NCBI GenBank assembly: GCA_009786175.1 | Contig: WQTQ01000181.1 | Coordinates: 1 to 15,178, forward strand | DNA: 15,178 nucleotides | Source: Bacillota bacterium | GTDB lineage: Bacteria; Bacillota_A; Clostridia; Lachnospirales; WQUN01 | Direction: 5' to 3' | Part shown: one piece after another, positions 4,508 through 15,178 of the stretch | Layout: each line of letters opens with the position of its first letter | Position numbering within the stretch: the first letter of the stretch is position 1 | Position numbers and translations under genes: made by a program | Notes under the pieces: generated by a model | Databases searched by the model: none | Told to the model about the DNA's origin: nothing | Seen by the model: the letters and a program-made list of their open reading frames with translations, nothing else

Positions 4508-4642
4508 TTACGGCAGTTCACATACTAATATAATTGGTGTTTCCGGAAGAGGATCCTTGCCATCAATAACGGCGTAAGTAACCACGCTGAAGCCCAATAC
4601 TAACACAAGGATCATTAACATACTTATTACTTTTTTTCTCAT
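4508..4642 (-). CDS. Small secreted-type peptide (44 aa), candidate signal pro-peptide of the RRNPP-like regulator
   Basis: This short gene encodes 44 residues. A basic start (MRKK) leads into a hydrophobic stretch at about residues 5-22, then VTYA at 21-24, a plausible signal peptidase site. A 20-residue polar tail follows, VIDGKDPLPETPIILVCELP, containing three prolines besides the terminal one and a single cysteine. Its ATG overlaps the TGA stop of the TPR regulator (ATGA). A very strong Shine-Dalgarno, GGGGAGGTGA (4659-4650), lies within the regulator's last codons, 7 bases from the start, so it is translationally coupled. Small exported peptides directly after an XRE/TPR regulator are the hallmark of RRNPP pairs such as PlcR-PapR and NprR-NprX, whose active peptides come from the C-terminal end. 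The signalling role is inferred. A plain small membrane or exported peptide is the alternative. Confidence 0.72.
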   Translation of the reverse strand: MRKKVISMLMILVLVLGFSVVTYAVIDGKDPLPETPIILVCELP

Positions 4643-5934
4643 TGCAGGTTCACCTCCCCACGTATTATTTTTCTAAGAATACGGTTTTCAATTTCTGATA
4701 TTTCAAAAGATTTTGAAACCTTTCTTGTTTTTATATAGTGCTGTTTAAGCAGCTTGCAATACTCCAATGCCTTAAAATGTTGGTACTCTTCCACCAAGTA
4801 AGGAATTGTCACAGTCTCTATATATTCAAGTGATTCTTTTTCGCCAAGAGTTAAAGAATGGCCCAAGGATTCAAACAAAATGGAATATTTTTTACTATCG
4901 GATAAGGTCATTCCTTCATCTAGCAGATCACTCAACCCGGGAAATTTTGCTTGTACACGCTTTCCTCCTAAAATAAGACAATGTATCTTCTGGTATAGAT
5001 TTTCTAAATAGAAATCTTTGTCGTCCTGAAAGAGCTCAAATGCCCGGTTAAAGTAGCGTATCGCTTCTATCCATTCCTTCTTTTCCTTGTGCAGGCAGCC
5101 ATAATTATGAGTAATTATTCCGACATATACATCATTGTTGTCACTTTTTGCTTGTATTAAAGATTTGTCCAACAATCTTTTTGCGATATGCACCTCGCCT
5201 ATTTCTATATAGTTAGCAGCAAGAAGATTGCCAAAATACAACTCCAAATCTTTCAATATATCGCCTTTGTGGTTTGCGCGGAATTCCTGTGCAAATTTTA
5301 TCGTATGAAATGGCAGGCATAGATTTGAATAGCAAGCAGCTATGTTGTAATAAATCCCATCTTCTTGATTATAAGCATTCTCTCTTAAATCATATGCCTT
5401 CAGATAGAAGCATAACGCTTCTTTTTTAAGACCCCGGCGGAAATGTAATGAACCTATGGAAAAATAATAGTAGTACATATTCGCAAGATTTGTTTCATCT
5501 AAAAACTCACGCGACATATTAAGGCATTCTTCAGCGTCGGTAAGGTTTCTTTCTGCCATATACAAATTTGCTTCAAATATCCGGTATCTAGTTATTTTTT
5601 CATGTTCATATGGCAGATGAAGTATAACTGACACTTCTTTCTTTATTACATTCGCTTCATCCAAATTCTTGGCTTTGATTGACTCGTACCACCTTTGAAG
5701 ACGAAAGCTAAAAGCAAGGAGTTCCTCTCTAGTTAACGGAGCGTCTCCTATACCCAAAGCTTTTTTTATTGCGTTCAGCATAGTTTCGTTACAGTCCGTT
5801 TCCCCCCGCTCCACACGGCTGAGTGTTGGGATACTGTATCCTGTAATATGCGATACATACTCCAGCGAAAATTCCTTTAATGTTCTGATTTTTCTAATTC
5901 TTTCTCCTAACGTCATTGTAACTTCATTTTCCAT
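4639..5934 (-). CDS. XRE-HTH/TPR transcriptional regulator, RRNPP (PlcR/NprR/Rgg)-like
   Basis: This is a cytosolic DNA-binding regulator of 431 residues. An XRE-type helix-turn-helix spans about 8-61 (LGERIRKIRTLKEFS, then TGYSIPTLSRVERGE with the recognition helix). From about 75 to the end it is all-helical with tetratricopeptide-like repeats, for example YYYFSIGSLHFRRGLKKEA and ITHNYGCLHKEKKEWIEAI. HTH plus C-terminal TPR at this length is the architecture of RRNPP regulators, in which the TPR domain binds a re-imported peptide. The start at 5934 has TAGGAGGTGA 6 bases upstream. An earlier out-of-frame ATG at 5939 is too close to the ribosome binding site. The stop overlaps a small secreted-peptide gene. 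The gene is divergent from the LoaP/exporter operon, its most obvious target. The class is well supported; peptide sensing and target are inferred. Confidence 0.82.
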   Translation of the reverse strand: MENEVTMTLGERIRKIRTLKEFSLEYVSHITGYSIPTLSRVERGETDCNETMLNAIKKALGIGDAPLTREELLAFSFRLQRWYESIKAKNLDEANVIKKEVSVILHLPYEHEKITRYRIFEANLYMAERNLTDAEECLNMSREFLDETNLANMYYYYFSIGSLHFRRGLKKEALCFYLKAYDLRENAYNQEDGIYYNIAACYSNLCLPFHTIKFAQEFRANHKGDILKDLELYFGNLLAANYIEIGEVHIAKRLLDKSLIQAKSDNNDVYVGIITHNYGCLHKEKKEWIEAIRYFNRAFELFQDDKDFYLENLYQKIHCLILGGKRVQAKFPGLSDLLDEGMTLSDSKKYSILFESLGHSLTLGEKESLEYIETVTIPYLVEEYQHFKALEYCKLLKQHYIKTRKVSKSFEISEIENRILRKIIRGEVNLQ

Positions 5935-5971
5935 TCCATGTCACCTCCTAATTTTTTCACGCACAACTCAT

Positions 5972-5985
5972 TTTGCACAAGCAAA
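5972..5985. promoter_or_regulatory. Short inverted repeat at the regulator start site, candidate autoregulatory operator
   Basis: TTTGC-ACAA-GCAAA is a 5+5 bp inverted repeat touching the -10 box and predicted start point of the regulator promoter. It overlaps one of two direct GCACAA copies (5961-5966 and 5975-5980, 14 bases apart). Another TTGC/GCAA palindrome occurs at 6090-6098. The arms are short, so chance occurrence is possible. Confidence 0.25.
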
Positions 5986-6013
5986 TTATACACTATTTGT
6001 ATGTCTGTGAAAA
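5985..6013 (-). promoter_or_regulatory. Predicted promoter of the TPR regulator and peptide gene
   Basis: On the minus strand a perfect TATAAT (5990-5985) lies 17 bases after TTTTCA (6013-6008), a moderate -35. The predicted transcript starts near 5978, leaving a leader of about 44 bases before the start codon at 5934. It is a sequence-based prediction with a strong -10 and a modest -35. Confidence 0.6.
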
Positions 6014-6157
6014 TGTTTTGCTGAAAAATGGTGAAACTTACCTTTTTTCCGAATTTTCATACATTACATATCCGTGACCAACTGTATTGTTGCGGCAAAA
6101 ACACAACATTTATGATGGTGTAATGACGCCAATATTTGCCCGCATAAAATCGCGTGT

Positions 6158-6186
6158 TTGTGAAAAATTTAGTCGTTGCATATTTA
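6158..6186 (+). promoter_or_regulatory. Possible promoter of the LoaP/exporter operon
   Basis: TTGTGA (6158-6163) and TATTTA (6181-6186) are separated by 17 bases. The start point would be near 6193, giving a leader of about 140 bases that contains the hairpin at 6228-6252. Both boxes deviate from consensus, which suits a regulated promoter but also leaves the call uncertain. The rest of the 394-base gap (5940-6333) holds the divergent regulator promoter and AT-rich DNA with no supportable gene. Confidence 0.4.
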
Positions 6187-14044: not shown

Positions 14045-14097
14045 TGACTCTGGATTTTGAAATGAGTGTGAAAGCGCGTGCCTATGATTTGCCCTAA
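14044..14097 (+). other. Short zero-frame start of the GNAT-like gene; frameshift site CCC-T-AAA
   Basis: ATG at 14044 overlaps the ABC2 stop (TAATG) and has a good ribosome binding site (TTGGAG, about 7 bases upstream), yet reads only 17 codons (MTLDFEMSVKARAYDLP) before TAA at 14095-14097. Skipping T14095 would join it without a gap to the downstream frame (...YDLP then KLIVEKDDIERL), giving one 335-residue protein. CCC followed by U and a stop is a plausible +1 slippage context for a proline tRNA. It could be a programmed frameshift, a genuine one-base insertion or a sequencing error. A stand-alone 17-residue peptide is the fourth option. Confidence 0.55.
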
Positions 14098-15052
14098 ACT
14101 AATCGTTGAAAAAGATGATATAGAGAGATTGTCAACTGAATTACTTGGCAATCATACACTCCCTGCATTTCTATTTGACGAAACAAAGTATATACGAGTG
14201 GTAATCGGAATGAAAGTTGCTAATAATTATGTTGGTATGAGTTACGGGGTCATCGCGCATAATACAGAAGTTTTTTTTCTCCATTTTTTATACATTAGTA
14301 AAGATTACCGCAGGTGTGAATTCGTTATTCATTTATTAGAATTTACATTGAAATCTGCTGTTATTACTGCGGAAGCAAAAAAAGCGATCTGGAAATATGT
14401 CATATATGAGAACATGAGTGATGTGCATCTAAAACTTTTGTCCATGCTTCCATTTTGTCATGTAACAAAAATCACAAAAATAAAAAGTTACCAAATAAAA
14501 ACTAAAGATTTTGAACATATACGCTTAGGAAAATTTATTTCGCGTAACTCACATAGTCTGAAAAACAGCAAGTACAGTATAGTGAGGTGGTTCGAATGCG
14601 ATAATAGGTTGAAAGAAATGATGTTTAAAATAGAGACGAGTATAAAACATGATAAAAACTATTTATCTCCATTTATTGAAGATGAAATTAGTTGGCAAGG
14701 AAGTTTAGACGAACAAACTTCACTTGTTCTTGTGAAAAGAGATGTGCAAGAACCTTTAGGGTGGATAATATGCAGTAAACTTTCCGACAAAAAAGTGCAG
14801 ATAGAACGTTTATACATTTACGAAGACAAGAGAGTAGGTTTCGTTGCGGCTCATTTTCTTGCCTATGTGTTGGACAAAATCAAACTATTGTATGAACAAC
14901 TTTGTTTTAATGTGATTGAAGGAAATCAACAAATGAAGAGATTTGTAAATTATTTCAACGCACCTATAGTTGACATGGATTATAGTGCATTAAAATTAAG
15001 TATCATTACATGTAAACTTGAAATAGTTTTTGAGAGACATGCTACTGAATGA
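14078..15052 (+). CDS. Tandem GNAT-like protein, possible peptide acyltransferase or immunity factor
   Basis: The open frame gives 324 residues from a GTG (or 322 from ATG 14084), neither with a good ribosome binding site. The true start is probably 14044 through a +1 shift. Two GNAT-like halves are visible. About 35-130 contains YVGMSYGVIA and LYISKDYRRCEFVIHLL. About 165-300 contains PLGWIICSKL, LYIYEDKRVGFVAAHFL and FNVIEGNQQMKRFVNYF. The two LYI-x-x-D-x-R segments align with each other, indicating internal duplication. The acyl-CoA pyrophosphate loop is lost in the first half and only partly kept in the second (RVGFVA), so activity is uncertain. The gene is visibly more AT-rich than the exporter genes, suggesting separate acquisition. 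GNAT enzymes are known peptide modifiers or self-protection factors in RiPP clusters; which applies here is unknown. Confidence 0.6.
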   Translation: MPMICPKLIVEKDDIERLSTELLGNHTLPAFLFDETKYIRVVIGMKVANNYVGMSYGVIAHNTEVFFLHFLYISKDYRRCEFVIHLLEFTLKSAVITAEAKKAIWKYVIYENMSDVHLKLLSMLPFCHVTKITKIKSYQIKTKDFEHIRLGKFISRNSHSLKNSKYSIVRWFECDNRLKEMMFKIETSIKHDKNYLSPFIEDEISWQGSLDEQTSLVLVKRDVQEPLGWIICSKLSDKKVQIERLYIYEDKRVGFVAAHFLAYVLDKIKLLYEQLCFNVIEGNQQMKRFVNYFNAPIVDMDYSALKLSIITCKLEIVFERHATE

Positions 15053-15087
15053 AGCGGCATGATTAGCTACAATCCATATTAGACTTC

Positions 15088-15116
15088 TTGCATAACTAAG
15101 CAAAAGATAGTACACT
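15088..15116 (+). promoter_or_regulatory. Weak possible promoter before the last gene
   Basis: TTGCAT (15088-15093) and TACACT (15111-15116) are 17 bases apart and would start transcription near 15123, just ahead of the ribosome binding site at 15127-15134. Each box matches consensus at only three or four positions. A separate promoter would fit a highly expressed peptide precursor, but the match is modest. Confidence 0.25.
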
Positions 15117-15139
15117 TCCAATTAGTGGGGGTGAACAAA

Positions 15140-15178
15140 GTGAAGTATGAGAAGATGAAAAAATATGGTGAAGGCAAA
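15140..15178 (+). CDS. Start of an unidentified gene (13 codons visible), possible peptide precursor
   Basis: A GTG at 15140 follows the strong Shine-Dalgarno GGGGGTGA (15127-15134) by 5 bases and opens a frame without stop to the window edge. It encodes a lysine-rich start (MKYEKMKKYGEGK). An internal ATG at 15155 is in frame but lacks its own ribosome binding site. The visible residues do not identify a family. Being the next gene after an NHLM exporter operon, a leader-peptide-bearing precursor is an attractive guess; any small regulator or structural gene remains possible. Confidence 0.5.
   Translation, partial: MKYEKMKKYGEGK

What the first reader, a model, noticed from the sequence alone, without database searches (positions are those of the whole stretch)
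4508..15178. Candidate integrated system: peptide quorum sensing, LoaP antitermination, partner switch and NHLM export in one locus
The divergent RRNPP-like pair, LoaP as first gene, a complete phosphatase/STAS/kinase module and a two-ABC NHLM exporter are contiguous with gaps of about 4-25 bases inside the operon. Each family is known. I do not know a described system joining all four layers. The model is density sensing, then operon initiation, then read-through, then post-translational gating, then export of a processed ribosomal peptide.
Basis: partly seen in the sequence, partly recalled or inferred. Interest (0 to 1): 0.85.

Follow-up and report, generated by a model that had tools for sequence, protein, structure and literature searches.

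The report
Quorum-wired peptide-export operon with phospho-switch
An unnamed, probably Clostridia-type bacterium carries an operon that pairs a two-part peptide exporter with a protein phosphorylation switch beside a genuine peptide cell-density sensor, and a relative of that operon is wired to a completely different density sensor and lies near an actual exported-peptide gene.

Summary
The HTH-TPR gene and its overlapping 44-aa secreted peptide are a well-supported RRNPP pair: 11 of 20 homologue loci have such a peptide gene against 2 of 286 control genes, and the predicted TPR fold matches Rap/NprR. LoaP, membrane PP2C, STAS, HATPase, NHLM ABC1 and ABC2 follow at gaps of 4-33 bases, with a 69-aa remnant of the NHLM HlyD subunit and a GNAT-like gene.

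Comparison splits the four layers. The seven-gene core (PP2C to GNAT) recurs in one other genome among the loci read (63-81% identity, GNAT 38%). There LoaP and RRNPP are not beside it; a complete divergent agrACDB stands in their place, followed by an NHLP precursor and a radical SAM protein. STAS genes are enriched near NHLM exporters in a Clostridia sample (5 of 30 loci, 0.7 expected); PP2C genes are not.

So: a probable quorum-controlled RiPP export operon with a built-in partner switch and interchangeable sensors. LoaP read-through, order of layers and gating of the exporter are unproven; no convincing precursor or LoaP RNA element was found in the window.

The parts
4508..4642 (-). 44-aa propeptide of the RRNPP pair: signal-peptide-like N-terminus, short C-terminal part
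   Evidence: translation and 4-base overlap with the receptor's end; 11 of 20 receptor homologue loci have a like arrangement, 2 of 286 controls
4639..5934 (-). RRNPP-type receptor/regulator (HTH + TPR), 431 aa
5935..6333 (.). 399-bp divergent intergenic region/leader of the operon
   Evidence: sequence; no Rfam hit; promoter-like and terminator-like sites at shuffle level over 4440-15178
6228..6252 (+). 11-bp inverted repeat with one mismatch and AGA loop, no T run: candidate operator or RNA element
   Evidence: 43-nt piece chosen around it folds at -13.7 kcal/mol, z -2.84; longer leader pieces z -0.28, -0.69, -1.85
6334..6897 (+). LoaP, divergent subclade, first gene of the operon
   Evidence: NF033641 135.7 bits over cut-off 125; subclade alignment
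6919..8655 (+). membrane PP2C phosphatase (QueT-like domain + SpoIIE)
   Evidence: Pfam QueT 43.4 (cut-off 33.7), SpoIIE 173.8 (cut-off 25); motifs GGDFYD, GDVSGKG, YTDGVTEA, QFDDI present (their role as metal sites recalled)
8684..8986 (+). STAS protein (anti-anti-sigma type); start TTG 8660 or more likely ATG 8684
   Evidence: Pfam STAS 43.3, cut-off 22.6; Ser aligned with the SpoIIAA/RsbV acceptor column (acceptor position recalled); start by comparison with the relative
9003..9452 (+). HATPase_c_2 protein (RsbW/SpoIIAB-like kinase)
   Evidence: Pfam 55.5 bits, cut-off 27.4; N-, G1- and G2-box motifs present (box names recalled)
9465..9674 (+). 69-aa membrane stub: N-terminus of NHLM HlyD only
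   Evidence: TIGR03794 positions 1-45 of 421, 32.8 bits, cut-off 156.2; same 69-aa gene in the relative, 81%
9681..11849 (+). NHLM ABC1: C39 peptidase-permease-ATPase
   Evidence: TIGR03796 913 bits; Cys, His, Asp and Walker motifs present; full-length match to PDB 4ry2 'ABC-type bacteriocin transporter'
11861..14044 (+). NHLM ABC2: permease-ATPase
   Evidence: TIGR03797 737 bits, cut-off 709.4
14078..15052 (+). GNAT-like protein, 324 aa
   Evidence: Pfam Acetyltransf_1 23.9 bits, cut-off 20.7, weak; relative 38% identical in the same place

Best explanation
A density-controlled RiPP export operon with an inbuilt partner switch. The secreted propeptide (4508-4642) is matured outside, re-imported, and binds the HTH-TPR receptor, which controls the divergent operon promoter (pair shown by comparison and fold; control of the operon inferred from position and from the agr cassette in the relative). 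LoaP, made first, modifies RNA polymerase so that this long operon, or a distant biosynthetic operon, is read to the end (inferred). The HATPase phosphorylates STAS; the membrane PP2C, perhaps sensing a small molecule through its QueT-like domain, dephosphorylates it; free STAS or freed HATPase then sets whether the system is active (module shown by domains and motifs; target unknown). ABC1 cleaves a double-glycine leader and exports the peptide together with ABC2; the HlyD subunit is reduced to a membrane stub. The likely cargo is an NHLP-type, radical-SAM-modified peptide, as near the relative's operon; its gene was not found in this window.
For: Gene calls over curated cut-offs. RRNPP pair: 11 of 20 versus 2 of 286, fold. 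Core operon conserved gene for gene in L210, 63-81% except GNAT 38%. In L210 a complete agr system is divergent from the core: LytTR regulator and GHKL kinase, AgrB 124.8 bits, AgrD 31.6 over cut-off 19; one AgrB match in that genome. Same contig: NHLP precursor 56.3 over cut-off 50.9 and a radical SAM/SPASM protein. STAS within 10 kb of NHLM ABC2: 5 of 30 class loci (four genomes), 0.70 expected, p 8e-4; 2 of 7 family loci, 0.12 expected.
Against: No expression data. No convincing precursor or maturase in the window (one 26-aa ORF at 5913-5993(-) meets the loose GG pattern and is judged chance). LoaP and RRNPP are not beside the relative's operon; among the printed lists (120 PP2C of 7998, 11 LoaP, 18 receptor hits) receptors share no contig length with the other two beyond the query's own. 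SpoIIE genes are not enriched near NHLM in the class sample (1 of 30, 0.62 expected). No convincing LoaP RNA element; the column I take for the RNA-binding Glu is Phe here. AgrB lies near NHLM at 1 of the 37 loci counted.
Confidence: 0.55

Rival explanations
1. The partner switch is classical: HATPase is an anti-sigma factor for a sigma factor encoded elsewhere, and the exporter is merely one gene set of that regulon. No direct gating of export. (Compatible with the rest of the best explanation.)
For: STAS and HATPase resemble RsbV/SpoIIAA and RsbW profiles, though below their NCBIfam cut-offs. Sigma-70 genes with regions 2 and 4, ECF-like, lie after NHLM ABC2 in L162, L165 and L168, two of these stretches also holding a STAS gene.
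Against: No sigma gene among the window's main genes and none recognised in L210, where seven outer ORFs were not profiled. Bordetella BtrU/BtrV/BtrW is reported to control secretion itself (PMC7498569, passages).
Confidence: 0.35
2. Chance neighbours: the RRNPP pair regulates itself or other genes and LoaP serves another operon; only the seven-gene core is a unit.
For: RRNPP homologues are multi-copy and dispersed (18 of 295 genomes, several with 5 scored copies, the cap). LoaP on the same contig as NHLM ABC2: 0 of 32 loci. The relative lacks both beside the core.
Against: LoaP ends 21 bases before the PP2C gene on the same strand, and a LoaP homologue (P0123) and the nearest PP2C homologue (P0002) both report a 14855-base longest contig with the same sources (chance by a jitter test 0.0003 for top two against top two, 0.025 for any pair). 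The relative has another peptide quorum sensor in the same divergent position.
Confidence: 0.2
3. The exporter secretes the quorum peptide itself, so the locus is a self-contained signalling loop without a RiPP.
For: No convincing GG-type precursor found in the window.
Against: The propeptide has a signal-peptide-like start and no double-glycine motif; C39 motifs are present; an NHLP precursor lies on the relative's contig.
Confidence: 0.05

Closest known systems
NHLP/NHLM three-gene export system (TIGR03794/TIGR03796/TIGR03797; Haft et al. 2010, PMC2887384, passages seen)
   Same: ABC1 with C39 peptidase and ABC2, both over cut-off; NHLP precursor near the relative's operon
   Different: HlyD cut to 69 aa; partner switch and GNAT-like gene in the operon; no precursor found in the window
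RRNPP quorum-sensing pairs beside gene clusters (PMC10075063, section 12 read and passages; Rgg/SHP with RaS-RiPPs, PMC13361665, passages)
   Same: HTH-TPR receptor with adjacent secreted propeptide next to an export operon
   Different: target operon begins with LoaP and a partner switch; the family counts in section 12 name no Lachnospiraceae or Defluviitaleaceae
LoaP antiterminator (PMC12691694, passages seen)
   Same: NF033641 over cut-off; first gene of a long operon
   Different: divergent subclade (motif FRRQGKK); no recognised UNCG hairpin; target unknown
Bordetella BtrU/BtrV/BtrW partner switch for type III secretion (PMC7498569, passages seen)
   Same: PP2C, STAS and kinase linked to a secretion machine
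   Different: exporter here is an ABC peptide exporter; no ECF sigma gene in the operon
agr quorum sensing
   Same: stands in the equivalent divergent position in the relative L210
   Different: not homologous to RRNPP; none recognised in the window

Membership tests
RRNPP quorum-sensing pair | receptor with HTH and a TPR domain of Rap/NprR fold | tested here: met
RRNPP quorum-sensing pair | adjacent small secreted propeptide gene | tested here: met
   44-aa ORF overlapping the receptor's end; 11 of 20 homologue loci versus 2 of 286 controls, rule set after a first look at the 20
RRNPP quorum-sensing pair | receptor binds the matured peptide and changes DNA binding | not testable with these tools
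   needs biochemistry
LoaP | NF033641 score over curated cut-off | tested here: met
   135.7 versus 125 bits
LoaP | UNCG-type hairpin in the target leader | tested here: inconclusive
   one weak 4-bp candidate in the leader at 6091 (7 sites in the whole window, both strands); the scan did not ring clearly in 31 other LoaP loci either
LoaP | RNA-contact residues (E40, R41, I143 in B. velezensis) | tested here: inconclusive
   assumed E column is Phe, R kept; B. velezensis sequence not in hand; I143 not mapped
NHLM export system | ABC1 and ABC2 over curated cut-offs | tested here: met
   913 and 737 bits
NHLM export system | HlyD fusion protein TIGR03794 | tested here: not met
   69 aa, 32.8 bits, cut-off 156.2; hence described as a reduced variant, not a standard three-gene system
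NHLM export system | NHLP or Nif11-type precursor nearby | tested here: inconclusive
   no convincing one in the window by ORF and GG-pattern scan, but the window ends 126 bases after the last gene; NHLP on the relative's contig
Partner-switching module | PP2C, STAS and HATPase with catalytic motifs and acceptor Ser | tested here: met
   over Pfam cut-offs, below the cut-offs of the related NCBIfam equivalogs that appear
Partner-switching module | known output partner (sigma factor or other) | not testable with these tools
   no sigma gene in the operon; target needs binding assays

The most novel reading that the evidence does not exclude
The partner switch acts on the exporter itself: free STAS or HATPase docks on ABC1/ABC2 through the 69-aa HlyD remnant and opens or closes peptide processing and export, so that a quorum signal builds the machine and a phosphorylation state, read by an S-component-like sensor, decides when it fires. 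Quorum sensors (RRNPP or agr) are exchangeable cassettes for this core.
Probability: 0.25. Interest if true: 0.8.

Novelty: new variant of a known kind. Interest (0 to 1): 0.6.

Why it matters
Post-translational control of RiPP exporters is, as far as I recall, hardly described. Searches of the held open-licence library pairing partner-switch terms with NHLM/NHLP, bacteriocin or RiPP terms listed no paper on the link (4 listed; none; 8 of 10 listed; 7 listed). A core found under two unrelated peptide quorum sensors gives a natural test of how density sensing is plugged into peptide export, and a synthetic pheromone would be a simple way to switch on a silent cluster.

Tried and rejected
Rejected: housekeeping NusG for 6334-6897 (NF033641 over cut-off; nusG 68.3 versus cut-off 135.7). 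The LoaP-like gene near NHLM in L167 is NusG-like (24% identity to the window's LoaP, VVH-type start). The 69-aa ORF as assembly or frameshift debris: a gene of the same length is in L210.

Led nowhere: viral-contig scan (no relative); Rfam; tRNAs (none); UNCG scan; GNAT model (pLDDT 33, not used); HATPase against PDB (none); GNAT search of 295 genomes of the order (G425 only); LoaP search of the same sample (nothing above 33% identity). Nif11 leaders: match at E 0.01 in 19 of 33 NHLM genomes, over the cut-off in 11; in G425 only one weak match, on another contig.

Counts and dropped rows: for enrichment only NHLM ABC2 rows of 500 bits or more were used (32 class loci, 8 family loci). I left out G003 (two loci) and G001 because they were found through the PP2C query, and row G406 because it is cut by a contig end. 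The family sample was itself chosen through G001, and its two STAS hits are G403 and G425, the relative described here. Several loci are cut by contig ends, so neighbours can be missed. The pair test used 20 loci kept from 55 printed matches; its rule (start -50 to +25, 25-75 codons, hydropathy 2.3, K or R in the first ten) was set after one search had shown these loci.
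Full report
Observation. HMM scans give an HTH-TPR regulator on the minus strand, then on the plus strand LoaP, a membrane PP2C, STAS, HATPase, a 69-aa ORF, NHLM ABC1, NHLM ABC2 and a weakly GNAT-like gene. Gaps are 21, 4, 16, 12, 6, 11 and 33 bases; the STAS start is more likely ATG 8684 than TTG 8660, judged from the relative. No host genome is held for the window, so its organism is not known.

LoaP. The protein scores 135.7 bits, cut-off 125. It belongs to a small divergent subclade: 10 non-self homologues at 44-59% identity. 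The Glu of the ER pair found in many other LoaPs of the sample, which I take for the RNA-contact Glu-Arg pair of B. velezensis, is Phe here; this rests on alignment through PDB 8f5g, labelled NusG in the PDB, and is uncertain. A UNCG-hairpin scan found one weak candidate in the leader (6091) and did not ring clearly in 31 other LoaP loci, so it decides nothing. An inverted repeat at 6228-6252 gives a stable 43-nt fold (z -2.84), but the longer leader pieces fold no better than shuffles or only slightly better (z -0.28, -0.69, -1.85); it may be an operator or an RNA element.

Core operon. A 391-genome sample of the class and the 38-genome family of L001 were searched for NHLM ABC2, and the neighbourhoods of 32 and 8 loci were read (and L001), several cut short by contig ends. 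One genome, G425, carries the same seven genes in the same order (L210: PP2C 63%, STAS 72%, HATPase 77%, 69-aa stub 81%, ABC1 79%, ABC2 75%, GNAT 38%). The equal 69-aa length argues that the HlyD remnant is a real gene. In the other NHLM loci where a HlyD-like gene was recognised it is about 133-539 aa. A GNAT search of 295 genomes of the order found G425 alone, so this compact form is rare among the genomes searched.

What the relative adds. In G425 the divergent neighbour of the core is not RRNPP plus LoaP but a complete agr system: LytTR regulator and GHKL kinase, AgrB and AgrD. It is the one AgrB match in that genome. G425 does have a LoaP, but on another contig and only 28% identical, and a receptor homologue on yet another contig. 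Past agr, on the same contig, lie an NHLP-leader precursor over its cut-off, two other ORFs (one DUF7005) and a radical SAM/SPASM protein. The span from GNAT to the precursor is about 15 kb. The cargo of this exporter type is therefore plausibly an NHLP RiPP, and a second, unrelated peptide quorum sensor sits where the window has its first. It is one relative.

LoaP link. LoaP homologue P0123 and the nearest PP2C homologue P0002 both report a longest contig of 14855 bases and the same sources. A jitter test of my own puts a chance match of top two against top two at 0.0003, and of any pair at 0.025. No receptor homologue shares a contig length with either printed list beyond the query's own. 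In the class sample LoaP over the cut-off was found in 62 of 391 genomes; 2 of the 26 genomes with NHLM ABC2 of 500 bits or more also have LoaP, and 0 of 32 loci have it on the same contig. None of 80 PP2C loci gave a tblastn hit to the window's LoaP or receptor.

Partner switch and NHLM. Starting from PP2C, 6 of 80 loci carry NHLM-scale ABC1 and ABC2 nearby, with STAS genes and MatE-HATPase genes around (the fusion was profiled in two). Starting from NHLM, and leaving out loci found through PP2C, STAS lies within 10 kb in 5 of 30 class loci, from four genomes (0.70 expected, p 8e-4), and in 2 of 7 family loci (0.12 expected); SpoIIE in 1 of 30 (0.62 expected, not significant) and 2 of 7 (0.10 expected). 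The association is supported for STAS and held by a minority of exporters. Motifs of all three proteins and the acceptor Ser are present (their roles recalled). The output is unknown: sigma-70 genes next to NHLM in three other loci favour classical sigma control; Bordetella BtrU/V/W (PMC7498569, passages) is a precedent for partner switching acting on secretion.

Novelty. RRNPP beside RiPP clusters is known (PMC10075063 section 12; PMC13361665 passages), as are LoaP in biosynthetic clusters (PMC12691694 passages) and the NHLM exporter (PMC2887384 passages). A partner switch inside an NHLM operon, and the exchange of RRNPP for agr on one core, I did not find in print (searches, judged from listings; open-licence papers only). 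I rate it a new variant of a known kind.

Noticed in passing
L005:8157-9878, L009:7411-9201: MatE transporter fused to a C-terminal HATPase_c_2 domain, in NHLM/PP2C/STAS neighbourhoods of Blautia schinkii and a Lachnoclostridium MAG.
   Followed up: partly
L162:10142-10645, L165:12173-12658, L168:7463-7942: ECF-like sigma-70 genes a few hundred to about 1200 bases after NHLM ABC2, candidate partners of a switch.
   Followed up: partly
window 6919-8655; L001:9893-10606: The PP2C has a QueT-like domain; L001 has a separate gene with a weak ECF riboflavin S-component match directly before its PP2C, suggesting small-molecule sensing.
   Followed up: no
L228:8777-9040 and 9213-10409: Elsewhere in G425: a weak Nif11-like GG peptide beside a radical SAM maturase (best profile PapB, below cut-off) and two ORFs of 546 and 592 aa that look like ABC transporters by eye, not profiled.
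   Followed up: partly
L001:17375-18396: Two Nif11-leader precursors over cut-off directly after NHLM ABC2, with STAS and HATPase further on.
   Followed up: partly
L181-L200: The HTH-TPR/propeptide family reaches five scored copies (the cap) in single genomes, and the 11 peptides found have different tails: a large uncharted pheromone set.
   Followed up: partly
window 1-1245: MatE transporter running off the window edge, divergent from a UvrD-like helicase; not linked to the operon by any evidence here.
   Followed up: no
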